Source of the DNA: Neofusicoccum parvum
Taxonomy: Eukaryota; Ascomycota; Dothideomycetes; Botryosphaeriales; Botryosphaeriaceae
NCBI GenBank assembly: GCA_020912385.1
Contig: CP087216.1
Span: 372,001-436,000, forward strand
DNA length: 64,000 bases
Direction of reading: 5' to 3'
The translations under genes and the position numbers were made by a program. Every line of letters starts with the position of its first letter. The first letter of the stretch is position 1. The notes under the pieces were generated by a model that was given only the letters and a program-made list of their open reading frames with translations, was not told where the DNA came from and did no database searches. Positions 31,583 to 50,941 of the stretch are shown in pieces.

Positions 31583-33809
31583 ATGGCCCCCATAGTACCG
31601 ACTCCCGACTGGGTGAAGGCCCTCAAGCCCTCGGGCATCCAGGGCCACGAGCTCCTCGCCAAAGAGCGCGCCCAGAGCAACATCCCCGTCGAGAAGCTCT
31701 CCGAGTTCCTATTCTCCAAGGAGGCGCTGGAGCGCAAGCGGCGCGTGCTGCAGGTGCTCGAGGCCGAGAAGATCTTCGACAAGTCGCAGAACTACTTCCA
31801 GGGCCGCATTGACCGCATCGAGACGTCGCTGGCTCGAGCCAAGAAGCTGCGCCAGCTGACCGTCAAGCACGGCTGGTCCGAGGACGAGTTCCGCTGTGCC
31901 ACCGACCTGATCAGCGAGCCTACTCCCTACGGCCTGCACGACAGCATGTTCTTGGTATTCCCCGCCGCCTCCGACGCCAGAAGGCTTCCGCTAATCCCAG
32001 TTAGGTCACCCTCCGCGACCAGAGCACGCCTGAGCAGCAGAAGCTCTTCTACGAGAAGGCCGCAAACTACGAATACATGGGATGCTATGCTCAGACCGAG
32101 CTGGGCCACGGTTCCAACGTGCGGGGCCTTGAGACGCTGGCTATCTGGAGCCCCGAGGACAAGAGCTTCATCATCCACTCCCCACACTTGACCGCTGCCA
32201 AGTGGTGGATCGGCTCGCTGGGCCGCACCGCCAACCACGCCGTGGTGATGGCCCAGCTGGTCATCAACAACAAGCCCTACGGCCCGCATCCCTTCATTGT
32301 GCCTATCAGGGACCTCAAGACGCACCAGCCGCTGCCGAACATCCACATCGGCGATATCGGACCCAAGTTCGGCTACAAGTGAGCATCCCTGCATCCATCC
32401 CTGCTCTTGCCCGGAACGGCAACCCGCTAACATGCTGCACCCACAGTACCATGGACAATGGTTTCCTGCTCTTCAACAAGGTCAAGATTCCCCACGTCAA
32501 CATGCTGGCCAGATTCTCCAAGGTCGACCCCAACACGGGCAAATACATTCGCCCAGAGAGACCCGCTCTCGTCTACGGCACCTTGACCTGGGTCCGCAGC
32601 AACATCGTCATGCAGGCTGGCAGCACGCTTGCGCGCGGTGTCACCATCGCCACGAGGTATTGCGCCGTTAGGAGACAGTTCCAGGATAGGGATTCAACGG
32701 ACAAGAAGAGCGGCGAGACCCAAGTCCTCGACTACACCATGGTTCAGATCCGTCTTTTGACGCTCCTGGCTGCTACTTTCGCCCTTCACTTCACCGGCAA
32801 GAGCATGATGGCACTGTACCAGGAGAATCAGAAGAGGATGAACGCGGATGTTGGCAAGGTGGGCAGCACGGAGCGGGGAGCTGGCCCTGAAGAGACACAC
32901 TCTGGAAGCGATTTGCTCGCCGATCTGCACGCTACGTCCTGTGGCTTGAAGTCCCTTGCCAGTTCCACAGCTGCCGAGGGCCTGGAGGTGTGCCGCCGTG
33001 CATGTGGTGGCCACGGATACAGCAACTTCTCTGGCATCGGAACGTGGTATGCTGACTACCTTCCGACTGTTACCTGGGAGGGTGACAACTACATGATCAC
33101 CCAGCAGGTCGCACGGTACCTTCTCAAGTCCGCCCGCAGCGTGCTCAAGGGCGAGAAGCCTACCAACGACACGACTACCATCTTGAAGACCTTCCTTGAC
33201 AAGTCCGACATGGGCGCCGCATTCGATATCCTTGGCAAGGACGAGGATATTGTCGCCGCCTACGCATGGCGTGCCTCCTTCCTCACCTTCGAGGCGCTCA
33301 AGCACCGCGACGAGCAGAAGAAGGCCTGGAACGACCTCCTCGTCGATTTCTACCGCCTCAGCAAGGCGCACTCGCAGTACTTGATCGTCAAGAACTTCTA
33401 CGAGTCCATCCAGGCCACCGAGTTCGCGCGCGAGCTCGACCCGGAGACGCAGACGCTCATGTACAAGCTGTTCCGGCTCTACGCACTGCACACGCTCGAG
33501 AGCGAGGCCTCGGAGTTCTACACGTCGAGCGCGGTGACGGTCCGCCAGATCCAGCTCGCGCGCACCAGCGCCGTCATGAAGCTGCTGGCCGAGATCCGGC
33601 CGCACGCCGTGCGCCTCGTCGACAGCTGGGACTTCCCCGACTGGCAGCTCGACAGCAGTCTGGGTCGCGCCGACGGCAAGGTCTACGAGGACATGTTCCA
33701 CCGGGCCAGCGAGCTCAACCCGCTCAACAGCATCACATTCGACCCGTACCCGGACAGCCCGGTCTTGTTCAAGGAGAACAAGAGCCAGGAGTTCAAGAGC
33801 AAGTTGTAA
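31583..33809 (+). CDS. POX1: Peroxisomal acyl-CoA oxidase
   Basis: Three exons, 31583-31954, 32005-32378 and 32447-33809, give 703 codons (702 aa), the normal length for the family. It catalyses the first step of peroxisomal beta-oxidation, oxidising acyl-CoA to trans-2-enoyl-CoA with FAD and releasing hydrogen peroxide. Motifs seen are GCYAQTELGHGSNVRGLET, PHLTAAKWWIGSLG, ARRACGGHGYSNFSG-like (RRACGGHGYSNFSGIG) and LPTVTWEGDNYMITQQVARY. These cover the FAD-binding and catalytic regions. The last three residues are SKL, a perfect PTS1 signal for peroxisome import. The first intron (31955-32004, only 50 nt) uses GTATTC and TTAG. Confidence 0.95.
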
Positions 33810-34550: not shown

Positions 34551-35560
34551 GTGCTCATCGACCCTTCACATTTGCTCTGTCCGGAGCGTGCGCCCCTTTG
34601 GGATGCCGAACAGCATCATTGCGCTCATTCTTACCGTCCGTTGCCAGAAGGCGAGATGCGCTTTCTCATTCTTTTTCCTGGCCAGTCTGACAATGAGATT
34701 CGAGGTTCCCTTCTCAATGTGAGCTTTGGAAACCTCCCTTGATTCGATACCATGTCATACATGTAGGCAGATGAGAACGATTGCGAGGGACAAAATTTCC
34801 CAGATTCTTGGTGGGCGCCCACGAACAATAATTTACGAAGCACCTTGACGTCGAATAAAGCCTCCGTATCACCAGCGACTACTTCAGATTGATGCTATCT
34901 ACATTAAATAATTTTCTGTTGAAGAACGCAATCATCAAGTCCGACACATGGCAAAAACATATGAAGGGGCCTCAAAGGTGTTTGTCTATCTCGGGGAGGA
35001 TACAGACAACCATTTTGTGCCATTTAGTGATCTCGGATCGCTGTTTGCAGAATCCCAATTGGTCAAATGTCCGGAAACTTTGAGACAAGTCCTGTGACAT
35101 TCTCTATCCAAATTTCTGAAACGGCAATGGTTCTCCCGTATCTCGGTGGTTCAAACATACTCACTGGCTCAGGAAGGCTCTGGATTTTGGAAACAGAAGC
35201 GTCGATCTCTACTGGATGAGTCGGAGCTTGAAAGAATTATTTTCATATTCCACGGAAGAGCACCCACCTTTTCTTAGCCTCGCACGAGGACTCAATGGAC
35301 ATCTCTGGGACTCCGGGATTTGAACTCTGAAAAAGATCACCGCGCGCTACACTTCAGAAGACCCCAGAGATGAATATTATGTCTTGCGTAGCTTCGAAAC
35401 CGACATCCCACAAATGGACCTTATTCCGGATTATGCAAGAACGGCGAACGAGATATACAAGAAGTGGCGGCCTCTCCTATTGTTCGAAAGCATTGCTCGC
35501 CCAATATCCTATCCTCTTCCTACGTGGTTCATGTTCCTCACCAGCTAAGGCATCGTGGAT
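34551..35560 (+). pseudogene. Decayed HET-domain gene
   Basis: Read in three different frames, this stretch gives the successive parts of a HET (heterokaryon incompatibility) domain. The first frame holds YRPLPEGEMRFLILFPGQ, the standard N-terminal pattern of many HET proteins, and stops at TGA 34740-34742 and TAG 34764-34766. A second frame starting near 34885 holds QIDAIYIK, a TAA at 34909-34911, then VEERNHQVRHMAKTYEGAS, VFVYLGED and, after a TGA at 35095-35097, FLKRQWFSRISVVQTYSLA. A third frame from about 35336 holds SEDPRDEYYVLRSF and LIPDYARTANEIYKKW. The blocks occur in the family's usual order. Multiple stops and at least two frameshifts make it a relic. It lies beside a LINE and upstream of an intact but only distantly similar HET gene. 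Confidence 0.85.
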
Positions 35561-36312
35561 AGTTGGCTTCAGCTCCACGACAGTATTAGATCTGAACAAG
35601 CATATAGATGGCCGTCGACTTTCCCTAATTGCGGACAAAATCGGCATAGGTCCGGCGCAATATCAGCCTCATGATGCTTTCGTATCTATTTTGGGCGCAA
35701 GCTATCTGGCAGTCTTGAGATCCGTTAAGGGCGGCTACAAATTCCTTGGTCCCTGTTGGTTTTTAGAAGAAACATGCATCGAATTGAAAGACCCATAATT
35801 CGGAAGAGTTGATGCGGAAGAGAAATTCACTATTCGAGGACAGGAAGGCTGCCGTGGCTTGGGTTGCAGCCGAAGCAAAGAGGTGGAATTTCATCATATT
35901 TCAGTACATTTACTTCATTTGCTTGCTTTGATTTTCGGGAATGGAAAGTCTCTACCCTTGTATCTTAGATATTCTTAGTTTATTTTCGAAAATGCCAGGG
36001 CTAAAAAAAAATAAGGAAAGTTGGAGGGTTGCACGGGCTACTGATGGGCCGACGTTTCGTTCTGCGTGATTTTTTTTTCTCCTAAGCGCTTCGCCCCCAC
36101 GTATTAACTCGTGTAGCTGCTCTCCAATTCGTCCCTTCAGGAGGCTTGCGGCAATCATGCATTGTGGGCCAATTGGAATGCCAGCGCTGATACGCGCCCC
36201 GCACTGCGCCGCTTTTCGTTCAGCTCGGAGCAGGCGTACACGCCGCATATAAGTGTAACGGCGGGCCTCTACCTCTAAGGATCCAAACACCAAAGAGGGT
36301 GGTAAGCCGTGT
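35561..36312. other. AT-rich intergenic region next to the LINE
   Basis: Low-GC stretch that may hold further decayed coding sequence from the HET relic at its left end. It has A/T runs near 36004 and 36070. No intact gene seen. Confidence 0.45.
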
Positions 36313-36322
36313 AGGGTTTACC

Positions 36323-36349
36323 TTGATTGATTGATTGATTGATTGATTG
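36323..36349. repeat. TTGA tetranucleotide tail of the LINE
   Basis: Six to seven copies of TTGA on the plus strand (AATC-type repeats on the element's strand), at the 3' end of the LINE. The first copy overlaps the target-site duplication. Confidence 0.9.
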
Positions 36350-36627
36350 CTATTTAACGTCCGGCGGGTCCACGCGTGGGTCGGCGGTATGCCTATCACC
36401 GTGTGCCCTTAGGCCTCCCACGGGGCATAGGACGTGCCACTCTACCTATAGTCTACGCTAAGGGGTGACATATCTGGGACGTCGCGTCTCTGTAGGCTGG
36501 ATATCGCAGTAAGGCGTTCTCTACCTCCTGCTCGGCTTTAGGGTGTGAAAGAGTGTTTGGGGCCTCTATAGGCGACTATACATAGGAAGGAAAGAGAGAT
36601 AGAATATGAAAGAGGGGGGAGGGGGGG

Positions 36628-38379
36628 TTAATTTAGATATGGTGGTGATGGTCTGAAGAGACTAGGGTCGATAGTGTCTGCCTGCTGGTTCCGGGCGCTA
36701 ATATCCGTAAAGAAGCGAGATTCTTCTACGAACTTTGCGAAGAGGATAGCCCCTTTTGGCGTGGCTAGAGTCATAGGGATAATATCCCTCGGCTTGCCTC
36801 GAAGGCAGTTTGTTCGTTTACGGGCGTGTCTACAGAATGCAAAGTGTATCGTTGTTTTTGGCCGCCCACAGCGGCAGAGGTTATCTTGTTCAGTGTGGCG
36901 GAAACGTTCGTGGTACGCCTGGAAGTCTCCATGGCCTGATCGTGCAGCCAGTAGGTGACCTAGTGTCTCTCTAGGGAGGAGAAGTTCTGGTGGAGCACCC
37001 TTTGCCAAAGGGATTTCTAGGTCCTGGTAGGATTTTGGGGCATTTTCTATCCACCACTGTTCGAAGCTTTCGTGCGCTCGTTCCTTTACAATCCTCTTGA
37101 TCTTTGCTACTGTCAGTGGAATGTCTGGAGGAGCAGAGGATGCGGCGCCCTGTTTGGCCAGGCGGTCAGCTTCTTCGTTGCCTGGAATTCCTTGGTGTCC
37201 CGGAATCCAGTAGATCATGATTTCTCCTGGTTGGATGCTGGGTGCTCGTTTGCGTCGTTTCCACAGTGTCGCTAGTTGTCGGATCCTAAGGATGCTCCCT
37301 TGGCTGGTATCGGTAGGGTTTCCTTCTAGTGCCCTATAGGCCGCTTCCTGGTTGTCAAGGAGGACGTAGATGTTGGTTGCCCGTTGCGTATCCGCCCGCT
37401 GCGCGGCTGCCCTTATTCCTGCCTCGATGGCGATGATCTCTGCATCGTAGACTTCGGCCGCTGTGCCTAGGCTTTGGTAGCCCTCACAGATTTTATATCC
37501 GCGTTGGAAGCCCACGTATCCTAGCCCAGTGTTGCCAGCTGCATCCTGGGACCCATCAGTGTAGAGGGTAATATCAGTGGGTGGGATTGATGAGATCCAT
37601 CGCATGGTGTCTGCGGTTGTCTCAGAGCTTCTTGTCTGCTGTGTCCGGGTAGTGTGCTTAGGTTCAAGGAGTAGAGGTCTTTCGCTCTCTGGAAGAAGTC
37701 GTGCTGTTCTAAGTAGTCTGGTTTGTCCTTTCCCCTTTGTACGAGTAACTAGAGGGTGGTTCTCGTCAAGGGTGCGGAGCCTGGCTGCGTATCTTAACCG
37801 AATTGTCTCCAGCATGACTTCTGCAGGAGGAATGCCAGCCTCCCTATTTAGGGCTGGCGTAGGCGTTGTACGGAATACTGGTAGTATAGCTCTTAGTGCT
37901 GTGTTGACTGTTATGTTGATACGTCTCACGAGCGACTTGCTTAGAGTTGAGACCTCTCCTTGTTTCTTAGCCGAGTATCGTGTGGGGCCTGGCCACCATG
38001 CCTCTGCTCCGAAGAAAGCTACTGTGATAATGCATGCGCGGACTGCGTGCCGGAGGAGTCCCGCCTGCGCTCCATGCTGTGTGTTCCCGAGAGTACGGAG
38101 GTGTTCTGCTACTTTTATTGCCTTTCCCGTCCAGTGCTCTACGTGTGTCCGGAAAGAGAGTCGCTTGTCTAAGGAGATTCCAAGCCATCTGGTTGCTTTG
38201 TTGGGCGAAATGTTAAGGGATTCGAGTTTCAACCTTGGGTTAGAAGGTCCGTTCTTTCGCGTGAAGTGTTGGAGCTCGCACTTCTCTGGGTCAAAGGAGA
38301 TGCCGTTTTGAGTTCCCCATTTGAGGGCTGCTTCGAGATTTGTTGCTAGTTTTGCTGTTGCCCTCTCCAGTGTAGACCC
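36628..38379 (-). pseudogene. C-terminal part of LINE ORF2: end of reverse transcriptase, RNase H, zinc knuckle
   Basis: A 584-residue frame with no stop. It starts after the reverse transcriptase active site (the F/Y-x-DD motif is missing), with the family's GISFDPEKCELQHFTR block and LGISLDKRLSFRTHV. The RNase H domain has its acidic residues in place: LYTDGSQD, DAEIIAIEAG, YVLLDNQEAAYRAL and GNEEADRLAKQG. A CCHC-like knuckle CRCGRPKTTIHFAFCRH follows near the end. The frame continues about 30 codons upstream into flanking DNA by chance. The element cannot move by itself, but its open frame argues for a recent insertion. Confidence 0.88.
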
Positions 38380-38463
38380 AGGGTTTACCTTGAGTGGGTA
38401 CAGGGTTGGGTGGGTTGAGAACAGTGACAAGATACACGTGACGAGCACTGCGTGCGAAGGCCG

Positions 38464-38792
38464 TGTTACTAACAATAGCTCGATTGTTATGGGAGATTGA
38501 CCACGGAGGTCAAAGCTATCTAAGGAGTGTGGTTTATATACGTAGGAGAGTTCTATACAATCTGTACGCTCAGCGAGCGTGTTGCGCTCAATCGCTATCC
38601 TTTCTGAGCCTTGTAGGGCATCTGAGCAGCAGCGCTCAGAGGTCCTATCCGCTCATTTGTCTTGGCGAATGAGCGGGTGGGTCCACTGATCGTGGGGGTC
38701 ACGTGACCTCGGTTCCTTGGGATTCCGACTTCTGTCGTTTCCTGCGGGGTTAACTCCCAACTTCCTCAACCTGTGGAGGCTGCGCCGTAACA
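38464..38792 (-). mobile_element. Candidate solo LTR
   Basis: A 329-bp unit begins TGTTAC and ends GTAACA, the perfect inverted hexamer typical of LTR ends (TG...CA). On the minus strand it has a TATA box (TATATAAA in 38531-38540) about 255 bases from its 5' end, leaving about 70 bases for the R-U5 part, as expected for a small LTR. No internal retroelement coding sequence adjoins it. The five bases on either side (GGCCG and ATAAG) do not match, so no target duplication supports it. Confidence 0.5.
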
Positions 38793-38865
38793 ATAAGGGC
38801 AGCCTCGGCGCATGACAGGTCACCAAAAATCCGACCGCCAAAAAAATAGCTTTGGCCATTGCGCT

Positions 38866-41237
38866 ATGCTCTGTCAGGTCTGCACTTGCATGCTTCGCGG
38901 AGGGATAGGGCAGCAATGGCACGGCACCTACGATCTGACTTTCAAGCATCACAGCAGGACCGAGACTCTACGGAGATCGAGGGAAGTGGGGTGCTTCATC
39001 TGCGTGGCGCTTGCGAACGAGTTGCAACAGGAAATCGACCTCTTTGACGATCAGGATCTTTCTATTAAAGCAAGCTTGTTGGAGCTTGAGAGAACTCAAG
39101 GGGACAATGGCCTTTATCGCCTAAATTTTGCTCTAGAGAAAGGACGAACGAGAACATTCGTTCTACAGCAGAAAGGTAAGGATGTTTTATTTCACCAACG
39201 TTTTATTTTTATTTTTATCTCTTTTTTTCTCTTTTGAAAATGAAGAGAAGATGATTTTATATGCAAGTATGTCTCACAAATTTGAATGCAGATCCGGATG
39301 AATTTTGGTTTAAAACACCAAAGTCCGAGCATACCTCATCAGATGAAGTCTTCGAGCTTGCGCACAGCTGGATCTCGGAATGTCGTTGCGCAGAACGTTG
39401 GGACAAACCCGGCGACAAATGGTATCCCAAAAGGCTTCTCGACCTTGGGGATCTGAGGACTGCCACTGGATTGATATGGGGAGAAAACCGGACGTTCATC
39501 TCGAAAAATGATAGTCTTGAGCACGCAAAGGTGCGGCTGGTCGAAAGCGCGCAGATTGACTTCAGCTCCCACCCAAATGAAAGATTTGTCACACTGAGCC
39601 ACTGCTGGGGCAAACCTGGCAGCGTGAAAGGTCAGTTAAAACTCACAGGTAAAACGGAAGAAAAATTCAAAAAGGGCGGCATAGAGCTCAGAGATTTTAC
39701 CAAAACGTTCCGGGACGCCATCTTAATCGCTTATCGCCTGGAAAAGGTCGGTTACATTTGGATCGACTCACTATGTATTAGACAGTTCAGCCCTGACGAA
39801 GATCCGGATGAGTATGAAAGGGACTGGCTCGAACAATCACGAGTCATGGGCCGGATATATCAGGAGTCCTTTCTCAACATTTCCGCAACGGCAGCTGTGG
39901 ATGGTGGCCAGGGACTCTTCTTTCCGCGCAACCCCGAGCATCTCTGGGAGGAAGAGATCAATCTTAACCTTGCTGGCTTATTGCGTCACCGCTATCAGTA
40001 CGACACGCCTGCCGCAAGCCCTAAGATGTCTGTGTTTCGTATGCGAGACGCCGACCACAATGACAACCCCGACCTCCCAAGGAAGAGACGCAGAACTGGT
40101 ATGGACTACTTGCAGCGATGTAAGATAATCGACGTTTCCTTCTGGGACGACTTGGTGGACCATGCACCCGTAAATCAGAGAGCATGGGTGTTTCAGGAGA
40201 GGTTTTTGTCGCCCAGAGTCCTCCATTTCTGCCGTGATCAGATCGCGTGGGAGTGTTCTGAGTTTGACAATGCCGAGGGGCTTCCAGAAGGCGTTCCAAA
40301 TTTCAAAGTCAAAGAGGGAGAGATTGTGGACGAGGGACGATTCAAAAGCCTGGATCCGGACACCGATGGCCGACGACTCCGGGAGATGCGGTTGAGGGGG
40401 CTTCCTGACCCGGACGAAGGGTTGAGGAATCTCTACATCCATGAGCTTTGGAAAAGGATAGTTGAGAGCTATTCAAAAACAAAGCTGACCATGTCCCGGG
40501 ACAAACTCATTGCTCTCTCCGGTATCGCCAAGATGTTCTCCGAGTCGACTGGAGCAAGATATGTCGCTGGAATGTGGGAACAATATCTCGAGAGCCAACT
40601 ACTGTGGCGAGTAGAACCGAAGGTTAAAGATGGGATGTTCGAGAATCATTCGACGCGCGACCCGTTGAGAGCACCATCGTTCTCGTGGGCGGCATTGGAC
40701 GTCCCGCAGGGCATTGTATACGGAGAAGCAACAGACTACGGAAAAGATCGAGATTTGCAGCTTTTTTTCAGTGTGGAGAGCTGGTCGATCGAATACTTGG
40801 ATCCGGAGAACGAGTTCGGCATGATCAGAGAAGGCAAGGGCTACATCCAGCTCAGAGTGAAACACCTGAGGAAGATAAAGCTACGGAAATTGGAACCCCA
40901 TCGAAGGGTTCCATACGGCTGGCGGCTGGACGACGGTACTTCAGGACAATCTCTCGAACGAGAACATGGCAATGTGTTCCTCGATGCACCTGAAAGCGAT
41001 GTGGATATCTTCTCCGATGACGCAGAGATATACTGCATGCCCGCTGCCTGGGGAGATCGAACAGTCAACGAGAACTCCCGTTACCTGGTGTGTCTTCTGT
41101 TGAAATATAAGCACATACGTGGGCATATTCGGCAATTCAAGCGGATTGGATTGACGAAACTGTCAAAATATGCCGATTCAAAGTCTCAAAAAGAACTTCT
41201 TGGGACGAAAAAGGAGGAAAGGATAATTTTGTGTTGA
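38866..41237 (+). CDS. HET-domain protein (751 aa)
   Basis: Two exons, 38866-39175 and 39292-41237, join to exactly 752 codons. The HET domain, found in fungal self/non-self recognition genes, occupies roughly residues 200-370, with RFVTLSHCWG, YIWIDSLCIRQ, MGRIYQESFLNISATAA and, farther on, NQRAWVFQERFLSPRVLHF. Its N-terminus MLCQVCTCML fits this group of HET proteins; an ATG 54 bases upstream in frame (38812) is the alternative start. Overexpressed HET domains can trigger cell death in several fungi. The start codon lies only 74 bases from the candidate solo LTR, so its promoter may be partly transposon sequence. An extra C-terminal region (about residues 560-751) has no recognised domain. 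Confidence 0.9.
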
Positions 41238-41665
41238 ATTGAATGCACAGTTATTGTTTGTTCTGAAGAATGTCAAAGAAAAAAGGCTGCTTCTGTAGTG
41301 CAATTGGTATAGATGTCTGTGGCCTCGCGTGAAGATGTGATTCTGTTTATAATTGGCGCATGTGACGGCCCTGATGCAGTGCGTTTTCACATCTATCCTG
41401 GTATGCGAACTGCAAATACTGTGCTTGGCAGCTACAAAAACCTAGACATGGTGTCCGCGAAATAGCGCCCATCTCTTACAAAGTAGCGTTGAAGCCAATG
41501 CATCAGCAGCGCTTTGCTCAACGCTAAACCGCATTCGTTGCTGGTGGGGGCCAACCGGACACTGCCACACACCTCCGTCGGCCGCAGCTGCAGACATCTC
41601 CTCCTCACCGTCTCGCCAACACCCCATGTCCACCGTATCGGTTGCAGCCACAGGTGCCTACGACA
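41238..41665. other. Intergenic, no gene seen
   Basis: About 430 bases. At 41290-41305 there is a tRNA-like A-box (TAGTGCAATTGG), but no matching B-box or cloverleaf was found. Confidence 0.4.
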
Positions 41666-43105
41666 ATGGCAGAAGTTCTGGGTGTCGCTGCGTCAGCGAT
41701 CGAAGTCGCCAACCTCGGGTTCAAGCTCTCCACCAGCCTCTACAGCTACATCGAAACCGTCTCATCAGCTGACCGCCGCTTGAGAGAAGTCGCAACCAAG
41801 GTCGAGCTCACGACCGCCGTCATCCAGGAGGTTGGGCTCATTTTCGACGGACCGGAGATTGTCGCCTTGCGCAAGGAGAGCGCCGTCACCACCGCCAGGA
41901 ACACTCTGCGCGAATGCTCCAGTATCTTCGAGGAGATTGAAGACGCCGTCGTCAGATCAAAGAAGAACAAATTCACATTTCCCTTCCGGACATCGAAGCT
42001 TTCCGCTCTGAGCACAAATTTGGAAAGCTTGAAGAGCAATCTCTCATTGCTTCTTCATGTGCTGCAGCATGCCCACAGGATTGCATCCGACGAGAAGGCG
42101 CGAAAGGAAACCGAGGATCGGATCCGGGAAAGGGATGAAGCGTTGAAAGAACTACAGAAACAGCTCTCGGCTGAGAGAGATGCCTCGACATCTCTTCCTC
42201 CGTATGATGCCGGCCAAGGCGGAGGTATCTTCATCGGCCTGCATCAGCAGTTCCCGGACCAAACGGAGAAGGATCCTCCTCAGAAAGTCAGCAAAATAAC
42301 TGAGCCGAATGGCAGAACAGACGAAGATTCGGCTGCCCAGAAACCCACCCGTCATGTTACGGCCGAGGAACTGGAGTCTTGCGTCAGCGGGCTCAAGAGA
42401 CTCATTGAACATATCGAACGCTTTCAGAAAACAATCCCCGTGGCTGGAGAGCCAGAACCAACTAACGGTAATGCTCTTTTGCATACCTATGCAGAAGTCA
42501 GCAAAACCCTTGAAGAGGTCATCCCAAGATGTGGACCGGCTAAAGAGGTGAAGGCCGATGAAGAGCGGGCTGCGAAAGCTGCAAAGGCGCTTGGTTCTGA
42601 ACACGATACGGTGCCGTTTGTTGATGAAGAAGGGCGCAATATTTCCCCTGAACGAGGACATACAGTGGTGCTGGCGTCTTCGAGGCCTGCTGTCCGCGGA
42701 AAATACCAATTTGAAGCGGACTCCGATGAGGAGGAGATAGATTTCGAAGGTTTGAGTGATATTGGTGCTTCCACACATGTTTTGGAGCTGGGCAGAGCCA
42801 CAGGGGAAGCATCGGTGGAATTTTCCGAAAGCATACAGCGGATTAGTCAAAAGGTAAGCCCATGTCAATGGATCTCGCCGTGGATTGGGATAGTAGCAGC
42901 TAACGTTTCCTTGCTGGGAAAGTCTGATTCTGTGAACGATCAAGTGGCTTTGAACCGTACCCGGCTCGACAGGCTGGGTGGCTATACACCAATTATGTCC
43001 ACGAGCAAGCAGAGAGTCGGACTCCCGACCGAGCAGGAGTCTCAGAGGGACGGAGATGCGGTGGACGAGTTGCTGAAGGAATGGACCAATGTCTATGACC
43101 TCTAG
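41666..43105 (+). CDS. HeLo-like fungal N-terminal domain protein (about 456 aa)
   Basis: The N-terminal 150 residues (MAEVLGVAASAIEVANLGFK, then an Arg/Val/Glu-rich helix pair) match the widespread fungal N-terminal helical domain related to HeLo-like death-inducing domains. It is found at the N-terminus of many NLR and HET-associated proteins. A coiled-coil stretch follows (residues about 145-175, KETEDRIRERDEALKELQKQ), then a low-complexity middle and a short C-terminal part. The likely structure is two exons, 41666-42853 and 42923-43105. The 69-nt intron (GTAAGC, GCTAAC branch, AAG acceptor) is a multiple of three, so both spliced and unspliced forms stay in frame. Biochemical role unknown. 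Confidence 0.75.
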   Translation: MAEVLGVAASAIEVANLGFKLSTSLYSYIETVSSADRRLREVATKVELTTAVIQEVGLIFDGPEIVALRKESAVTTARNTLRECSSIFEEIEDAVVRSKKNKFTFPFRTSKLSALSTNLESLKSNLSLLLHVLQHAHRIASDEKARKETEDRIRERDEALKELQKQLSAERDASTSLPPYDAGQGGGIFIGLHQQFPDQTEKDPPQKVSKITEPNGRTDEDSAAQKPTRHVTAEELESCVSGLKRLIEHIERFQKTIPVAGEPEPTNGNALLHTYAEVSKTLEEVIPRCGPAKEVKADEERAAKAAKALGSEHDTVPFVDEEGRNISPERGHTVVLASSRPAVRGKYQFEADSDEEEIDFEGLSDIGASTHVLELGRATGEASVEFSESIQRISQKVSPCQWISPWIGIVAANVSLLGKSDSVNDQVALNRTRLDRLGGYTPIMSTSKQRVGLPTEQESQRDGDAVDELLKEWTNVYDL

Positions 43106-43590
43106 TGCTTCGGGTGCGTACAATTGAGGTGCGGCAGTTTCGGAAACAAGCACATCACAGCCAATAAACGCTACTAGGGCAACGAGAGAAGGCCAAGATG
43201 GCAGCCCGCTAATCAGCTGTCAAGGAACAGCCGCCTGCACGGCACACCGGCAACTCATGGTGCGGCACGGGCCGCCACGCTGCCGAGCGTCCCGTGCCCT
43301 GCATACCCGTCCTATCCGCATTTGAGCAAACACTCTCTGTATGGGCCGCCAAGAAGACTTCGGGTTCCTTCGGCTATCGAGCTCCGATGCAAGTCATCGG
43401 CTGCCTATCGAGAAGTTCCAATAGGATGACGCCACGGACCCGTGTTTGTGTGGCCCAAGACCTATCTCACCGCGCCTTCAAGCCTCCTCGTGGCTATTTC
43501 AACTGCCCGTCTCCCGTCAATTGCTTCAATCCGACAGATCTCATGGGACTCACTCTGCTTTCCAACTCTCCGGCAGCCGAACCAGACACA
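43106..43590. other. Intergenic, promoter of BTB-like gene
   Basis: About 485 bases, GC-rich at the left; holds nothing recognisable apart from the leader of the next gene. Confidence 0.4.
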
Positions 43591-44439
43591 ATGGCAACAA
43601 CCACCGACACCCCTCCCCTCCAAAACGACCAACCCCAGACCTCGTACGCCCCACCGCTCCCAACGCCCCCATCCAGCCTCGCACACATTAACTAATCCAG
43701 ACGCCGGCCCACCAGCCCCTACGCCAGCCCAATCGTCTACCTCACCTTCTCCACCTCCCCCCAGCGCTGGCCCATCCACTCCGCCTTCCTCACCCGCCAC
43801 CCCAAACTCCACGCCCTCCTCCAACAGCAACAACAGCAACAACAGCAACAACAGCAACAGCCCCCATCGCCACCATCATCATCCCCCCTGCCACCAACCT
43901 CCCCCACCCCACCCCCAGACCCCCACCTCCACCTCGACCACGCCGACCCGCAATCCGCACACACACTCCTGCACCACCTAACGACCGGGCGGTACCAAGC
44001 GCTGCGCTCCCCCGACGCGACGACCGAGTACGAGCGCGCGCTGCTGGCGCACGGCGCGGCGGGGTGGTACGGGCTGCGGGCGCTGCGGGCGCGGGCGGCG
44101 GCCGAGGCGGCGCGCGTCGCGCCCGCCGTGCCGCTCGAGGACGCGCTGGTCGAGATCGGGCGCGCCGTCGAGCGCGCCGCGCCCCGCGACCAGGACTGGC
44201 TGCTCGCGCACCTGGAGGCGCGGTTGAGGGCGGAGCACGCGAGGGATGCGGGTGTGTTGGGGGAGAGGGGGACGTGGAGGGGGTTCAATCCGTTTGTGAG
44301 GACGTTGGTTATGGTGGTGGTGGGGTTGCAGGGGGGGAAGGGGGGAGGGGCGCGGGGTGGGGAGGGGGAGGGGGGTGAGGAGGAAGGGGAGGAGGAGGGG
44401 GTGGAGGATGAGGAAGGGGAGGGAGAGGAGGAAGAGTGA
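43591..44439 (+). CDS. BTB/POZ-like protein with internal polyglutamine (263 aa)
   Basis: Two exons, 43591-43643 and 43701-44439, join to exactly 264 codons across a 57-nt intron (GTACGC ... TTAACTAATCCAG). The domain opens with YASPIVYLTF and HSAFLTRHPKLHALL, which fits the start of a BTB/POZ domain (protein-protein interaction). It is then interrupted by 13 Gln and a Pro/Ser stretch before LDHADPQSAHTLLHHLTTGRY, the usual second half. The C-terminal region is helical (ALLAHGAAGWYGLRALRARA) and ends in a long Glu/Gly-rich acidic tail. Without the intron the frame meets a TAA. The BTB assignment is moderate, since the core is divergent. Confidence 0.65.
43822..43860 (+). repeat. CAA/CAG repeat encoding 13 Gln
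   Basis: Thirteen mixed CAA and CAG codons in a row, in the frame of the BTB-like gene. The interruption pattern (CAA CAA CAG) suggests expansion of a 9-nt unit. Confidence 0.95.
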
Positions 44440-44549
44440 GGAGAATGACACTTATATCTGTGGGAGTGGGAAGTGGGACTTTGAGATCAATTTTGGAGCT
44501 TAAAGTACCGAAACTGCAAGAATCCTGCAGGCTTTGAAAGCCTTATTGA

Positions 44550-47500
44550 CTATCCTTCTGCACCTGCGTCGAGGAGAACTGCGACAATGTCATCGTGTCC
44601 TGCAACACGTGCAGCTCCCAGAGCAGTGCCGTGGAGCCCCCCTTGAGCATTGACATTGGCGCCTGCCTGAATGAGCAACCGCACGATATCACCATATCCC
44701 TGAACAGAAGCAGCTTGCAGAGGATTCCCGAACGCACCGCCTTCAGCGTTGACATCAACTCCACTTTCCAGCAGTAGTGGTATGCAATATTGAAGGCCGC
44801 CCAAGCATGCATAGTATAATGGCGGAGCCAGGCTCTCGGTCGTCCTCGGTGATGGGGGGTTGAAGCTCCAGTCCGGATTGTGAAGGCGGTAGCAGATGGC
44901 AAAAGACTTTGGCTTATTCAGGAAAAAGTCCACCACTGCTTCCGGCAGGGTAGGGTCTGATTCCCATACTACTACGACATAATCCATCCAGTACTCTGCG
45001 CAGTACTGTGCTGCTGGGAAAAGCTTCCGGGCTTCTAAGGTCGTCATGTCCTCATTAATGCGTGACAGGTATGCCAAGCAAACCTTCGCAATGGTTCCTC
45101 GGGCAATATCTTTACCGAAGGGGGTTGGAATTTGTAACCTCAATAGGTACTCTTGAACTGATCGGTGTGCTAATCGGACCAAAGATGGCAGCTCATTGCC
45201 ATCAACAGTAGTCCCTTTCGTGACGGTGACAAGGCTTGGGATGTTGCTTTCTATTGTTTTTTCCAGTTCCTGCCTCCTGATTACCTGGAAGTGAGGGCTA
45301 CCTTCAGTAACAAGATCAGCCATCTCCTCCAGGCGAAACGGGCGCCAGGATAAAATGGATAACTGCAGGATTTTAAAGAGGATCGTTTTGGTTGCTTCTT
45401 GAATATCTTCCACGGACTCCAGGACTCGCTCGTAACTGTCATCGAGCGTTTGTGGTAAGTTATTCAGCCATGACCCAATTTCTTTAGGATCCGCCAAGCA
45501 ATCCAATCTTTGGAGTTGACATACGACCCAGGGGAAACTGTTAAGGCTTAGTGATCCTGTTTCTCGAACATTAAATATTCAATCTAGGGAGCGATCTTCC
45601 TCACCTGCCATTGGTCGTTTCAATCAACTTATGAACAATATCCTCTCCAATATTCGACCTCTCAGTGAGAGCCAGTAAAGGGCAACAGCTGAGTTGTCTT
45701 CGAATGTAAGCTTCCATGTCTTCTTGCGATGTCTGATAGTGTAAGGTCAATTCCGATGCCTCAACAGACTTTGCTATCACGGGGTCTGATAGCAAACTGC
45801 TTGTACCCAGTATATGAATATTGGTGAGCATGGATTGATCCATATCTCTACACCAGCGGATTAATCGTTCGTAGTCGTCGCGTCCAGGAAAACATTCGTC
45901 AAGTGCATCAAGAACAATCCAGCATTTGTCTACTTCGCGGATCATGTTCTCGAACGCTTTGCACAAAGAATCTGTACTTGGATTGTTGCCGCTCCTCACG
46001 TAAGAGGAGAATAGAGGATCCAGGGGCGCCTGAACTTTCCTTCCCGGCTTGTAATGCTTGTTTCGGGGTAGTCGAACCAACCTTCCAAATGAGCTTTCAT
46101 TGATATTCTGGGAGTCCAAGTAAAGCTGCTGTATGAGTGATCGAATCAAGCTATCGAAAGAGCGTTTACTGGCATCCTGGAAGTCGAAGTAAAAGAAAAG
46201 AACGGGCTGGGTTCGAGAAGTGGTTGACTGAAGGTGCGTTATGATTGCACTGCTGAGAAAAGTCTTTCCAACCCCGAGCGGCCCCCTTAACCAGAAAAGC
46301 GAACTGGCGCCATTCTTCCAGTTGATGAAATTGGAGCTTCGAAGAAACCGGTCACCTGAGTTCTCAACGCGTTGAGAGCAGACATGAACGTGTATTGCGA
46401 GGTGTTCTGGAGCATTCAGCCAGGCCAAAACTCGTTTCTGATGTTTGGCTGGACTCCATTTGTCAGATGACCGCGCTCCAGAATTGTAGCAACACTATCT
46501 CAGTGCTATATTGAGGGACGAGAAAGATTCCATTTACTCACAAAGTGCATTTGACCCATGCCTGAAAGATTCCAGGATCTTGTCATCTTCTGGCGGAGGG
46601 AAGGATTCGGGGCGTATTCCAGGAGCGTCTAAGACGAATCTCCAATCTGCGAAGGTCGTAAATTCCGATGACGGGTATTCGTGGCTCTCCTCCGTTGTGT
46701 AATTATCGGAGAGGTCTTCATTTTCATATGCATCATCAAATGATGGAAGAGCCAGAGGGTTTGCTGCACTACCGTTGGTGGAATGGGAAGGGCCCATCGT
46801 CAGCCTAGCATCAGACATGTTGTCTTCGTCATCTTTTCCTGGAAGTGCGTTGACAGCGATCAACTCAAGATGACCGGCGATATGATCTCGAATGTTCCTG
46901 TAGGACTCTTCTGGAAAAGAAGCTATCACGCCCTCGCCGACTGTTTCCAGCCTCATTTCTGGCTCATCGCAAAATGTACAAGCAGCCATCATTCTGGAGG
47001 ACCCCGAATGTAAGGCAGAAGCAAGAGCCACAAAGACGTCGGGCAAAGGCTTTGCGCTCTTCTCGACTACGAAAGAGGCTTGTTCAGCGGATATCTCGCT
47101 AGAATGTTCATCATTGATGTGATGAATGAGGCCTTCAGAGCTGGTGAAAAGCTGATCTTCATGCCCATTCGCCTGGCATGACCATATCTTGGTGTGTTGC
47201 CATTCCATGTGATTGATCCATTCATCTTTGGTCTTGTACTGCCGATGTGGAGTATCGCAGTCTTCGAACAGACAAATGTATGGCTCAAGATCAAGCAAGA
47301 CATGACGCCTGGTCCATGTGAGAAACCAGTGATATACGAGGAGCTGTAAGGCGTGAACTTACTTCCAATGGATTATGCTGCCCTTCCTGAATATATCCTC
47401 TCCTAATGGTAGATTACAGTATGGGCAAACAGTTTCGATGTTTCCAGACTCGGGTCTCGGAAGTGTGGGCACGTCAATTTTGTCCAGGCCGGCTTTGACA

Positions 47501-48612
47501 GAGGGGCTAATGGTTGAAAGGACTACCGACTTGGCGTAGGTCGAGAACCCTTTCCTATTGACAACTGAAGCCTCGGTATCGGCGAATGTGACTGTCTTCC
47601 CCTTGAATTTTGGTTCTGGAACCCGCAATTCTTCAGCAGTATTGACAATCTGCAGTATAGGCCGAGCTTCTGTTGAAATGTCCGAGTCTGGCTTTGGATT
47701 GAACACATTCTCCACCCCACGCTGGAGCTTGATACGATGGTTTGCTCGGTAGAGAAACTTTTGTCTCCCGTTTAACACACTTCGGATTATCCGGTCTTTG
47801 AGAGCGGAATGATGCTGCAATCTGGGTAGGGTTCTCTCAAGGGACCATCTCAAAAATGATCCCAGGCTCTGAAGCTCCTCATCCAGTTCCGTATTCTCGT
47901 TTCTGCGCCAGTTCTTGATTCTATCCTCTTCTTTGTTTCGTTGTGGCTTTTTGATGATGGATGTGATTTTGTATAAGTGAGTGATTGTCTCGTTGGTTAT
48001 CCTCATCTGTGCGTCTTTCATTGGTGAACTTTTGGTTGACTCTTGGTCCTCTTTCTCGGAACCCGAATCATCATCGATTCCCAGAGATGAATTCGAGGAA
48101 TATTCATGGTCAGTGTCGTCATCTTCAAGCTCCTCTGCGTCTTCCAAAGTAGCTTCTCCTCCTGAGAATGGTTCCAGGCTGTGTTCAAGTCGCCTCAGCA
48201 GCGTCAATATAACGTCTCTGATGTTCGGATCATCACGCAGGCGATAGTCTGCAGATGCGTATCCTCCAGCAAAGACGCCAAGATTACCGGCCCAGATCTT
48301 GAAACGAGCTCGCTCATCTCGCAGCATGTTGTGGGTCATTGGGTTCTTTTCCGGTTCCTGAATGCAACGTAAGAAAACTTCAGCGCAACGGCGTGCTGAA
48401 TCATTGATGGCATAGGGTAGTAAAGTTTCTTTCGGTCCCTCATTCCCCTGGCTGGTGCTCGGGCCTGCTTCGGTCATTGCGGGTTTGATGCCCGAATCCC
48501 GGTGCGCGTGCTCTCCCTGGGGCCGTGCCTGGAGAATTTGGCGTTGTTCAAGCGCAGTAAGATTGGCGGTGGTTTTCTGTTCTGATATCTCATATACAGG
48601 ATCTTCGGCCAT
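44550..48612 (-). CDS. C2H2-NACHT-ankyrin NLR-like protein (about 1291 aa)
   Basis: Four exons, about 48612-47363, 47308-46542, 46475-45605 and 45537-44550, total 1292 codons. The N-terminal region has a fungal pattern (FKIWAGNLGVFAGGYASADY) followed by an acidic linker. Several C2H2-type units appear about residues 400-570 (CPYCN, CLFEDC, CTFCDE with following His pairs). The NACHT NTPase core has Walker A GPLGVGKT (about 737-744) and Walker B CWIVLDALDEC (about 857-867). It is followed by a winged-helix region (LAHRSVQEYLL) and three ankyrin repeats before the stop. Such proteins act as fungal NLR sensors. The joint between exons 2 and 3 is uncertain: the acceptor used here is GAG, while the better TAG acceptor leads to a stop. 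It may be two genes or a damaged one. Confidence 0.72.
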
Positions 48613-49338
48613 GTGGAATGGACCGGGACACTGCCGGTCACTGCGGCGGCACTGCTGGCAGGCAGGCCATGTCTCGTCGCACTACCGTTTTGACCACGAT
48701 GTGAGAACTGTACTGAAACTGGGAGGAATGAGGTGTGGAACGAAAAACTAACGCTGATATTCCTCGCCCTACACGTTGCACAGCTGCTGCTGCCCTTCGG
48801 GTCGCTGATCATTGATTCCGCACCTTAGTCCCAACACGGGACAGAACCTCCGTGGATGCGTTCGCTTTAGGTCCTTGTGGGCGCAGTTAGATGCGATAAA
48901 TCAGCTTTCTGGATGTTGCTGTGTTGAAGAGACGCTGTGCTGAAATCTTGCGAGAAGGCTGAGGCTGCATGTTACACAGAGGTGGGGCACGTTGACGAGA
49001 GTGATTCATCGTGCATATTCGTTCAGCTCCCTCTACTCTGCCTAGCCAATAGCACGGCACGTATGTGCCTTGTCTCGCATTATGCATTATTGACACGACA
49101 ATTTGTCAGCTTCTGCAGCCAAGCTGAAAAGGGCCTGACCCCGCCTCAAGGCCTTGGGGCTGGGCTGTGTGATTTCCACAGTCAGCCTCGCCTCTACATA
49201 CCCTCTCATTTCTATGTGTACTTAACCCAACCCTTCTCAGATCCCCTATTATACTACGAACTGCTATAGCTCAATCTGTTGTCACTTGCTTGAAGGCCAA
49301 GACTGGAAATCTGCCTTCTCCTTGATTGATCGGCAGTG
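48613..49338. promoter_or_regulatory. Divergent intergenic region between NLR-like and HeLo-like genes
   Basis: About 0.73 kb between two genes transcribed away from each other. A shared promoter is possible and would suit co-regulated partners, but no specific regulatory site can be recognised. Confidence 0.4.
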
Positions 49339-50941
49339 ATGGCTTCTGGAATTGAATGCGCTGGCCTAGCACTCGCTGTTCTACCTATCTTCATCGAGGT
49401 TGCTAAAGCTTACTCTGATGGCGTTGAGACAATTTTCGACGTGGCTATCAAGAGCAGATGGGATCAACGTTTGGAAGATTTCTACTTTGAGTTTTACATG
49501 CAGTTGTTCTACTTGAACGAGTGCATGCAAAAGATCCACGAAGGCGTCTTAGAAGCATATACCGGTCCTGGAGACGTTCCCCAGTCTACGAAACTCTTCA
49601 CAGAATGGCGATGCGACTCCAATCTGGAACTTGGTTTCCGACAATACTTTGGCTCTGAGGGTCGGTTCAACGCATTTACGATCATAAGCAAGAAAACTCT
49701 GCTGCTACTTCAACAACTAGTGAAGGACAAAACTAACCGTGTGGCTGCAAAGGATCAGGTCAGTCTTCTCCTATGAACTACTGCATGTGTACGGTGGCTT
49801 TTTTTGCTAATTTCACTGCAACCATAGAATCCCGAAGCGATGTTCAGCAAAATTGAAAAAATCGCAATCGCACGAGAGCTGGAGACCACCAAAAGCTCTT
49901 TAGTTGAAAGATTTGCGTTTTTCAGACATAGGGAAAAGCGCGATTGTTGCATTCGAAAGCTCAAGCTCTGGGTCGAAAACCTCGAGAAGCTCACTCAAGA
50001 GGCGAGGGGGCGCCCCAAAGACTCATATGAAAGCGCTACTCTGCATCCGTCGCTGGAACTTGATTTCCTCCTCTCCAAAGATTTAAGCACCGGCTCACCG
50101 CGAGACATCAGATGGCAAGAAGGAAATGTGCTGGTCACTTCTCAGTGGTAAGCCAATCCAGGAACTTGATCAAATATACATGCTGACGTAGTTATATAGT
50201 TTGAGTAACTCCGGATGCCATGGCCCTTTACAGGCACTTTGTGAGGTCTTTGGTCCGGATCTTCAGAACCACAGCATTGCATTGGTCTTGGAGGACACAA
50301 ACGGGCAGCAAAGCATGAAGCATCACAAAACCATATTGAGAAAGTTTCAGTTCCTGGAAGCTTCAGATCCAATATCATTAGCGGAGCTCCTGAACGGATC
50401 AACAAAATTGGGCCCCAGTGAGAAGAGAAGACTCGCTCTCGTTTTCGCACAGTCTCTTCTACTATATCATGACAGCGACTGGATATCCAATGGGTGGACC
50501 AAGGAAGACATTTGTTTCTTCTTCAAGTCTGAAGATGAACCGGAAGTTAGTCGTCCATTCCTCTCAGCCCGCTTTAGCAACGCTCCAACCGCCGGCAATC
50601 CATTCCGATGTACCAATCACCACCGCAACCCAAACATCTTGGCACTGGGGATTTTGCTCATCGAGATCTTCAATGAGAAGCCAATTGAGAGATGGAGGAC
50701 GATGAAAGAACGGAGGAATCCGAATGCAGCAACTATGTGGATGGTTGCCGACCGCGTTGTCAAGAAGATGGATCACTCACCATTCCGGGAAGCAATCGAG
50801 GCCTGTCTGGACATGAATTGGGTCCCTGCGGGCCGGGTTGCAGGACTAGAGGATCGTGAGACACGAGCGGGGCTTCTTGAGAATGTTATCATGCCGCTGA
50901 AACAGGGGATCAGATGGCTCTCAGTAGATAAGCTTCCCTAA
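49339..50941 (+). CDS. HeLo-like/DUF7580-type fungal protein (493 aa)
   Basis: Three exons, 49339-49758, 49828-50147 and 50200-50941, join to exactly 494 codons with GT-AG introns. The N-terminus MASGIECAGLALAVLPIFI, followed by amphipathic helices, matches the fungal prion-inhibition/HeLo-like N-terminal class. The C-terminal half has the order LGPSEKRRLALVFAQSLLLY, WISNGWTKEDICFF, VSRPFLSARF and NILALGILLIEIFNEKP. That is typical of the DUF7580 region, which resembles a degenerate kinase-like fold. Such proteins are widespread in filamentous ascomycetes and are thought to relate to heterokaryon incompatibility, but the biochemical role is not known. It is divergent from the NLR-like gene, with which it may be paired. 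Confidence 0.82.

What the first reader, a model, noticed from the sequence alone, without database searches (positions are those of the whole stretch)
34551..50941. Candidate allorecognition/innate-immunity island: HET, HeLo-like, BTB-like, NACHT-ankyrin and DUF7580 genes side by side
Within 16 kb lie an intact HET gene, a dead HET gene, two proteins with HeLo-like N-termini (one of them DUF7580-type), a C2H2-NACHT-ankyrin NLR-like gene and a BTB-like gene, mixed with a LINE and a possible solo LTR. These domain classes carry out fungal self/non-self recognition and programmed cell death, and NLR-effector pairs are often encoded next to each other. The NLR-like gene and the DUF7580-type gene are divergent and 0.73 kb apart, which suggests a sensor-effector pair. 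The grouping is seen in sequence; the joint function is inference.
Basis: partly seen in the sequence, partly recalled or inferred. Interest (0 to 1): 0.8.

Follow-up and report, generated by a model that had tools for sequence, protein, structure and literature searches.

The report
Fungal swappable-sensor and pseudokinase gene pair
Two back-to-back fungal genes, a multi-domain NLR-like protein and a kinase-shaped partner, belong to a repeated family of such pairs in which the partner stays the same while the other gene's far end is swapped, which suggests a fungal sensor-and-effector system.

Summary
The NLR-like gene (44550-48812, minus) encodes Zn2Cys6, a helical-bundle-plus-C2H2 module, NACHT and ankyrins; 526 bp away starts the DUF7580 gene (49339-50941, plus). 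In this genome the module occurs at 12 loci, all 12 head-to-head (190-529 bp) with one of 19 DUF7580 genes. Partner divergences correlate (Mantel r 0.77, p 1e-4). What follows the module differs: NACHT-ankyrin, HET, Macro/HSF, kinase, PHD-like and others. In four Fusarium assemblies the orthologous DUF7580 gene and a module gene ending in NB-ARC-TPR have consecutive locus tags. DUF7580 is predicted to be a kinase fold without catalytic motifs; two unpaired DUF7580 genes carry a Pfam HeLo domain in the same frame. Best reading: modular sensor plus MLKL-like pseudokinase effector. Linkage is shown; sensing, cell death and allorecognition are inferred. The BTB label and a HeLo-like N-terminus of the window's DUF7580 protein are not confirmed.

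The parts
44550..48812 (-). NLR-like gene, five exons (48812-48753, 48681-47363, 47308-46542, 46448-45605, 45537-44550), 1325 aa
   Evidence: Open spliced model; 93% relative P0156
48650..48785 (-). Zn2Cys6 domain, split by intron 1 (protein residues 10-38)
   Evidence: PF00172 24.3 bits, cut-off 21
46837..48480 (-). Conserved partner module: helical part plus C2H2 block (about residues 88-617)
   Evidence: Aligned with 11 paralogues; model of a homologue
45605..46400 (-). NACHT/NPHP3_N domain, only 60% identical to the nearest relative while its flanks are about 90%
   Evidence: PF24883 5e-32, PF05729 3e-9
44556..44819 (-). Ankyrin repeats
   Evidence: Ank_2 2.8e-16
48813..49338 (.). 526-bp divergent intergenic region between the two start codons
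49339..50941 (+). DUF7580 gene, three exons (49339-49758, 49828-50147, 50200-50941), 493 aa
   Evidence: Open spliced model; PF24476 3.6e-28
50047..50911 (+). DUF7580 domain, predicted protein-kinase fold without recognisable catalytic motifs; this copy lacks 57 residues present in P0121, P0122 and P0123 (junction near 50019)
38866..41237 (+). HET gene, intact, two exons; not shown to belong to the pair
   Evidence: PF06985 9e-21
34590..35900 (+). HET remnant with stops
   Evidence: blastx best E 4.5e-11
41666..43105 (+). Weakly PigL_N/HeLo-like gene, 456 aa open model; not shown to belong to the pair
   Evidence: PF17111 19.5 bits, below cut-off 27.2
43696..44439 (+).
36350..38650 (-). LINE fragment (body 36350-38380) with an LTR-like leader (38381-38650); not part of the pair

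Best explanation
The two genes are one two-gene unit of a repeated family: a sensor-type gene and a DUF7580 gene transcribed away from each other. Shown: linkage, orientation, correlated divergence, a conserved module, differing C-termini, a predicted kinase fold. Inferred: the DUF7580 protein is an MLKL-like effector whose pseudokinase domain holds an N-terminal helical region in check. The sensor's module (helical bundle plus C2H2) docks on it, and the swapped C-terminus (here NACHT-ankyrin) detects a non-self or stress cue. NTPase-driven oligomerisation relays the signal, and the effector then damages membranes or arrests the cell. My odds: real co-inherited unit about 0.95; sensor-and-effector division of labour about 0.6; cell-death output about 0.4; allorecognition specifically about 0.2.
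For: 12 of 12 module loci lie divergent to a DUF7580 gene, 190-529 bp from ATG to ATG. Distance matrices correlate, r 0.77, p 1e-4. The same orthologous DUF7580 gene has a consecutive locus tag to a module gene in four Fusarium assemblies, there with NB-ARC-TPR instead of NACHT-ankyrin. C-termini differ between pairs and across fungi. NACHT is 60% identical to the nearest relative while the module is 92% and ankyrins 90%. DUF7580 has a kinase fold by model comparison, and two unpaired DUF7580 genes have HeLo in the same open frame.
Against: No functional data. The paired DUF7580 proteins give no HeLo hit (hhalign 0.8%), and their N-terminal model is of low to moderate confidence. Foldseek had no match at E<=0.001 and TM-scores are low. 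Several partners (C1, C3, C13, C3b) show no recognised sensor domain. Zinc fingers fit DNA binding as well as docking. The window copy of DUF7580 lacks 57 residues and may be impaired. The window pair, C12 and C12b fall in different places in the two trees. The Fusarium adjacency shows no orientation.
Confidence: 0.6

Rival explanations
1. Regulator and target: the zinc-finger protein is a transcription regulator that controls the neighbouring DUF7580 gene through the short divergent promoter, and its C-terminal domain is a ligand or stress sensor; DUF7580 is a scaffold without a death role.
For: C2H2 block (GLI five-finger chain, E 2.4e-5) and, in the window copy, Zn2Cys6; start codons 190-529 bp apart; several relatives are named zinc finger transcription factor ace1 by their sources; HSF domain behind one module.
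Against: NACHT, NB-ARC, HET, kinase and Macro ends are unusual for a local transcription factor; co-divergence of the two proteins suggests contact rather than promoter control alone; HeLo-DUF7580 frames.
Confidence: 0.25
2. Killer and antidote or meiotic-drive pair: one gene harms cells that lack the other, which keeps the two linked.
For: Tight head-to-head linkage in 12 of 12, one locus with a degraded module gene beside an open DUF7580 gene (C8, by eye).
Against: The exchanged C-terminal domains have no place in a simple antidote; the pair is kept as an ortholog across Dothideomycetes and Sordariomycetes rather than turning over fast.
Confidence: 0.07
3. No joint function: an ancestral pair was duplicated as a block and drifted; adjacency is history only.
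For: All copies could descend from one pair, and co-duplication alone gives matching trees. Six of 19 DUF7580 genes have no module beside them as far as read or searched.
Against: Pairs are 13-49% (DUF7580) and 17-56% (module) identical and lie on eight contigs, yet 12 of 12 modules keep the partner within 529 bp; adjacency is also kept in Fusarium.
Confidence: 0.08

Closest known systems
NWD2/HET-S-type NLR-HeLo gene pairs with amyloid signalling (Podospora anserina)
   Same: An NLR gene beside an effector gene; membrane-targeting helical effector is the model.
   Different: No amyloid-type motif seen between NLR N-terminus and DUF7580 (simple alignment); the constant part here is a C2H2 module, and the effector candidate is a pseudokinase.
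Protease-gasdermin gene clusters of fungi
   Same: A sensor gene with variable repeats clustered with a death effector (more than 80% of fungal gasdermin genes are clustered with a protease gene; PMC12881547, passages).
   Different: No protease in the 12 pairs where a domain was recognised; no gasdermin looked for by a dedicated search. One unpaired DUF7580 gene does lie by a Peptidase_S8 ORF.
MLKL (four-helix bundle plus pseudokinase), and fungal HELL-kinase/pseudokinase proteins
   Same: Helical N-terminal part plus catalytically unlikely kinase fold; two unpaired DUF7580 genes have Pfam HeLo in frame. PMC12881547 notes that some HELL domains occur in proteins with kinase or pseudokinase domains (passages).
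   Different: HeLo not detectable in the paired proteins; no phosphorylating partner identified.
Head-to-head sensor/helper NLR pairs of plants with integrated domains
   Same: Divergent orientation, a constant partner, exchangeable domains.
   Different: The partner here is not an NLR. In Sordariales head-to-head NLR-NLR pairs are rare, 13 of 225 two-NLR clusters (PMC12258605, passages).

Membership tests
Fungal NLR | NACHT or NB-ARC NTPase with superstructure repeats | tested here: met
   NPHP3_N 5e-32, NACHT 3e-9, Ank_2 2.8e-16 in the ORFs of one spliced model
Fungal NLR | N-terminal effector domain of a known class (HeLo, HET, Goodbye, Patatin and so on) | tested here: not met
   N-terminal ORFs give only weak hits in Pfam and Zn_clus; the constant part is the C2H2 module
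DUF7580 (PF24476) | Profile match over the curated cut-off | tested here: met
   99.6 bits, cut-off 27; the match starts at profile position 44 because of the missing stretch
Protein-kinase fold | Two-lobed kinase fold in the predicted model | tested here: met
Active protein kinase | HRD catalytic motif | tested here: not met
   None seen in the 28 of 29 homologues that cover the region, alignment to kinases by eye
HeLo/MLKL-type executioner | HeLo or 4HB N-terminal domain | tested here: inconclusive
   Not found by Pfam or hhalign in paired proteins; found in 2 of 19 DUF7580 frames, both unpaired; N-terminal fold not searched alone
NLR-amyloid-HeLo pair | Amyloid signalling motif shared by NLR N-terminus and effector | tested here: inconclusive
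   Simple local alignment of 120 residues only, best E against DUF7580 1.1; no dedicated motif model was on hand
PF26082 zf-C2H2_AcuF | Profile match of the module | tested here: inconclusive
   All 120 listed relatives of the module profile carry it, but P0156, the nearest relative of the window NLR, does not, and only 2 of the 13 rows do; the family is not in the held Pfam copy
het (allorecognition) locus | Allelic polymorphism between strains that controls heterokaryon fate | not testable with these tools
   No strain genomes; only one close relative, from metagenomic contigs (P0156, P0121)

The most novel reading that the evidence does not exclude
A further widespread class of fungal sensor-effector unit beside amyloid NLR-HeLo and protease-gasdermin pairs: a constant MLKL-like pseudokinase effector (DUF7580) with a divergent sensor gene built on a helical-C2H2 docking module whose C-terminus is freely exchanged for NACHT, NB-ARC, HET, Macro, kinase, TPR, ankyrin, BAG, RhoGEF, homeobox or other domains.
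Probability: 0.45. Interest if true: 0.87.

Novelty: new variant of a known kind. Interest (0 to 1): 0.72.

Why it matters
DUF7580 and the C2H2 module are among the unexplained protein families of filamentous fungi; one profile search alone found 753 module relatives (capped). If they work as a pair, many proteins now named 'C2H2-type' or 'ace1' gain a testable role. Fungi would gain a sensor-effector system in which the bait changes while the effector stays, comparable to plant NLR pairs with integrated domains. Because the genes are fixed head-to-head, partners can be found in any annotated genome, so the question of what many fungal NLR-like proteins signal to becomes directly testable.

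Tried and rejected
HET as part of the unit: a listed HET within 10 kb in 4 of 19 DUF7580 genes (P 0.03), 3 of 18 places if the two C4 genes are counted once (P 0.10), 2 of 12 paired genes (P 0.17). Too weak to include. The window's own HET was not among the 150 scored matches, so that list is a lower bound.

BTB-like gene: no BTB family in Pfam and none among PDB sequences. Left as an unconfirmed ORF.

HeLo in the paired DUF7580 proteins: Pfam and hhalign negative. The HeLo profile there had only two sequences; shuffled-column controls scored 0.0-0.1% against 0.8%.

PDB sequence search of the DUF7580 profile: sulfotransferase and one isomerase row, E 0.078 or worse; taken as chance.

DEP and SIN1_PH behind the C6 partner: no homologue confirms the fusion; may be the next gene, so not counted.

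RIP: indices of the dead HET do not stand out from its neighbours.

NCBIfam: nothing for P0121 or P0012.

Literature: searches (DUF7580, 0 papers; FGSG_08146, 0 papers) listed nothing that describes this pair. No preprints and few subscription papers are held. For PMC12258605, PMC9815663 and PMC12881547 I saw passages; of the others, listings only.
Full report
What is in the window. The window is bases 372001-436000 of contig C11 of an unnamed 44.0 Mb, 18-contig fungal genome. Named relatives of its DUF7580 protein at 55-56% identity are from Macrophomina and Lasiodiplodia; the species is not known. The minus-strand gene (five exons, 44550-48812) encodes 1325 residues: Zn2Cys6 (PF00172, above cut-off), a long part with helices and C2H2 pattern that has no hit over cut-off in the held Pfam copy, NACHT and ankyrin repeats. 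The plus-strand gene (three exons, 49339-50941) encodes 493 residues with DUF7580. The start codons are 526 bp apart.

The pair is a family. DUF7580 has 19 matches in the genome. The N-terminal 617 residues of the window NLR gave 25 matches: 18 at 11 DUF7580 loci (the window included), six rows over the Zn2Cys6 region only and one C2H2-only row elsewhere. Two further module queries gave 26 matches (25 at DUF7580 loci) and 20 matches (16 at DUF7580 loci); the misses are C2H2-only rows in one stretch, C1:3228-3245 kb. The twelfth locus, C12:1136-1142 kb (C12b), was first found by reading beside a DUF7580 gene and is also hit (E 1.8e-4); it is the most divergent. All 12 loci were fetched and read. 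The 12 modules align along their length. All 12 are divergent to the DUF7580 gene, 190-529 bp between the start codons I chose. Random placement of 12 genes gave on average 0.04 and at most 3 within 4 kb in 100,000 trials (5 of 18 contig lengths estimated).

The other seven DUF7580 genes. C8 has a degraded partner on the expected strand (by eye). C13:1682930 lies by a Peptidase_S8 ORF on the same strand. C15 has an NB-ARC-TPR-like gene upstream on the same strand (by eye). C4:3321740 and C6:1889697 carry a Pfam HeLo domain in the same open frame, 26.5 and 100.6 bits against a cut-off of 23.2. The surroundings of C4:3328433 and C12:1686727 were not read; the module searches found nothing there.

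Partners diverge together. On alignments of 547 and 426 columns the distance matrices of DUF7580 and module correlate at r 0.77 (n 12; 1 of 20,000 permutations as high), r 0.86 without C10, C3b and C13 (n 9, p 1e-4) and r 0.91 without the window and C12b as well (n 7, p 8e-4). Groups (C13,(C10,C3b)), (C9,(C11b,C3)) and (C6b,(C1,C6)) appear in both trees; the window, C12 and C12b do not agree. Some gene models are approximate, above all C11b.

The far end is swapped. Behind the module: NACHT-ankyrin (window; C11b with a weak NPHP3_N match of 28.1 bits, and ankyrin similarity), HET in the same ORF (C9, 25.3 bits, cut-off 22.5), Macro and HSF (C12, 7e-31 and 6e-13), protein kinase (C10, 4e-9), a PHD-like stretch (C12b, 23.8 bits, below its cut-off of 27), and a stretch similar to the end of PF26118-bearing proteins (C6b). 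C1, C3, C13 and C3b gave no recognised domain. Relatives in other fungi hold such ends in one polypeptide: P0168 with RRM and Macro, P0158 with a kinase, P0022 and five others for C6b, P0035. The module profile found 753 proteins among 7994 scored candidates (capped); 120 are listed and all 120 carry PF26082, several with further domains such as PF00621, PF22893, PF13424, PF00076, PF02179, PF26118, PF24883, PF00046 or an N-terminal PF00172. The names RhoGEF, ULD, RRM, BAG, DUF8035, homeobox and AcuF for these accessions are recalled or from source labels, not from a call. Against this, PF26082 is not listed for P0156, the nearest relative of the window NLR, and only for 2 of the 13 rows, so the window branch is divergent.

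Other species keep the pair. 35 relatives of the window DUF7580 protein and 13 of the window NLR residues 1-680 were found. Four of the 13 come from assemblies that also gave a DUF7580 hit with readable tags, and all four pairs have consecutive tags and equal contig lengths: Fusarium culmorum HYE67_000229/000230, F. graminearum HG531_005780/005779 and SNK03_004369/004370, F. austroamericanum FAUST_2710/2711. Orientation is not visible. These four are close relatives, so they count as few independent cases; for the other nine adjacency could not be tested. In these four proteins similarity to the window NLR stops at residue 616, and the precomputed domains are NB-ARC and TPR (P0164 NB-ARC 33.5 bits and TPR_12 56.6 bits). 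So with an orthologous DUF7580 neighbour (about 47-49% identity over the whole length for most of these rows) the module is kept and the NTPase and repeats differ.

Local divergence. Against P0156 the window NLR is 92.4% identical over residues 40-700 (611 of 661), 71.8% over 700-770, 60.1% over the NACHT region 770-1075 (169 of 281), 75.6% over 1076-1210 and 89.6% over the ankyrins (103 of 115). P0121, the nearest DUF7580 protein, is 95.5% (471 of 493). P0156 and P0121 lie on separate metagenomic contigs; that they come from one organism is assumed. The window DUF7580 lacks 57 residues found in P0121, P0122 and P0123. Over 33 columns of that stretch 17 of 29 homologues are complete or nearly so, 6 partial and 6 blank (gene models may be at fault), and it is not found elsewhere in the 144 kb read. 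Whether the window copy is an allele or damaged is unknown.

Mechanism and how far it is shown. Shown: a linked, co-diverging two-gene unit with a constant kinase-like member and a member with a constant module and exchangeable ends. Inferred: sensing by the exchangeable end, transfer through the module, output by DUF7580. The MLKL-like output rests on the fold, on HeLo in two unpaired DUF7580 frames and on analogy with known fungal executioners (PMC12881547, passages). The best rival is a regulator-target pair, because the module has zinc fingers and sits on a short divergent promoter region.

Novelty. Eight paper searches listed no account of this pair. PMC12258605 (passages) reports 13 head-to-head NLR-NLR pairs among 225 two-NLR clusters in Sordariales and zinc fingers in 57 NLRs, 52 of them C-terminal; PMC9815663 (passages) has no 'C2H2' or 'zinc finger' in its main text. 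This is no proof of absence, since preprints and most subscription journals are not held.

Verdict. The six-gene island, the BTB label and allorecognition are not supported by what could be tested here.

Noticed in passing
window 36350-38650 (-): The LINE body has copies of 93-97% identity on C12, C10, C6, C14 and C1; four of them are cut at different points (834, 1530, 1543, 1935 of the query) yet have the same LTR-like leader (query about 61-272) directly beside them. The leader alone recurs in pairs 7616 or 7531 bp apart, as LTRs would; this looks like a template-switch chimera.
   Followed up: partly
G000 C11:450241-457113 (L028, L029): A second NLR/DUF7580 divergent pair lies 34 kb from the first, but it is not its closest paralogue (21% and 25% identity; its sister pair is on C3), so it is not a recent local duplicate.
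   Followed up: partly
G000 C13:1681430-1685044 (L014): A DUF7580 ORF of the divergent clade is followed on the same strand by a Peptidase_S8 ORF; no module partner seen in the 5 kb upstream.
   Followed up: partly
window about 50019 (+): The window DUF7580 gene lacks, in frame, 57 codons present in its 95.5% identical relative P0121.
   Followed up: partly
window 45605-46400 (-): NACHT region is only 60% identical to the nearest relative while the module is 92% and the ankyrins 90%, a mosaic pattern.
   Followed up: partly
window 31500-33800 (+): An acyl-CoA oxidase-like gene (by eye) in 57-65% GC borders the AT-richer 35-51 kb stretch, 45-53% GC apart from 43-45 kb.
   Followed up: no
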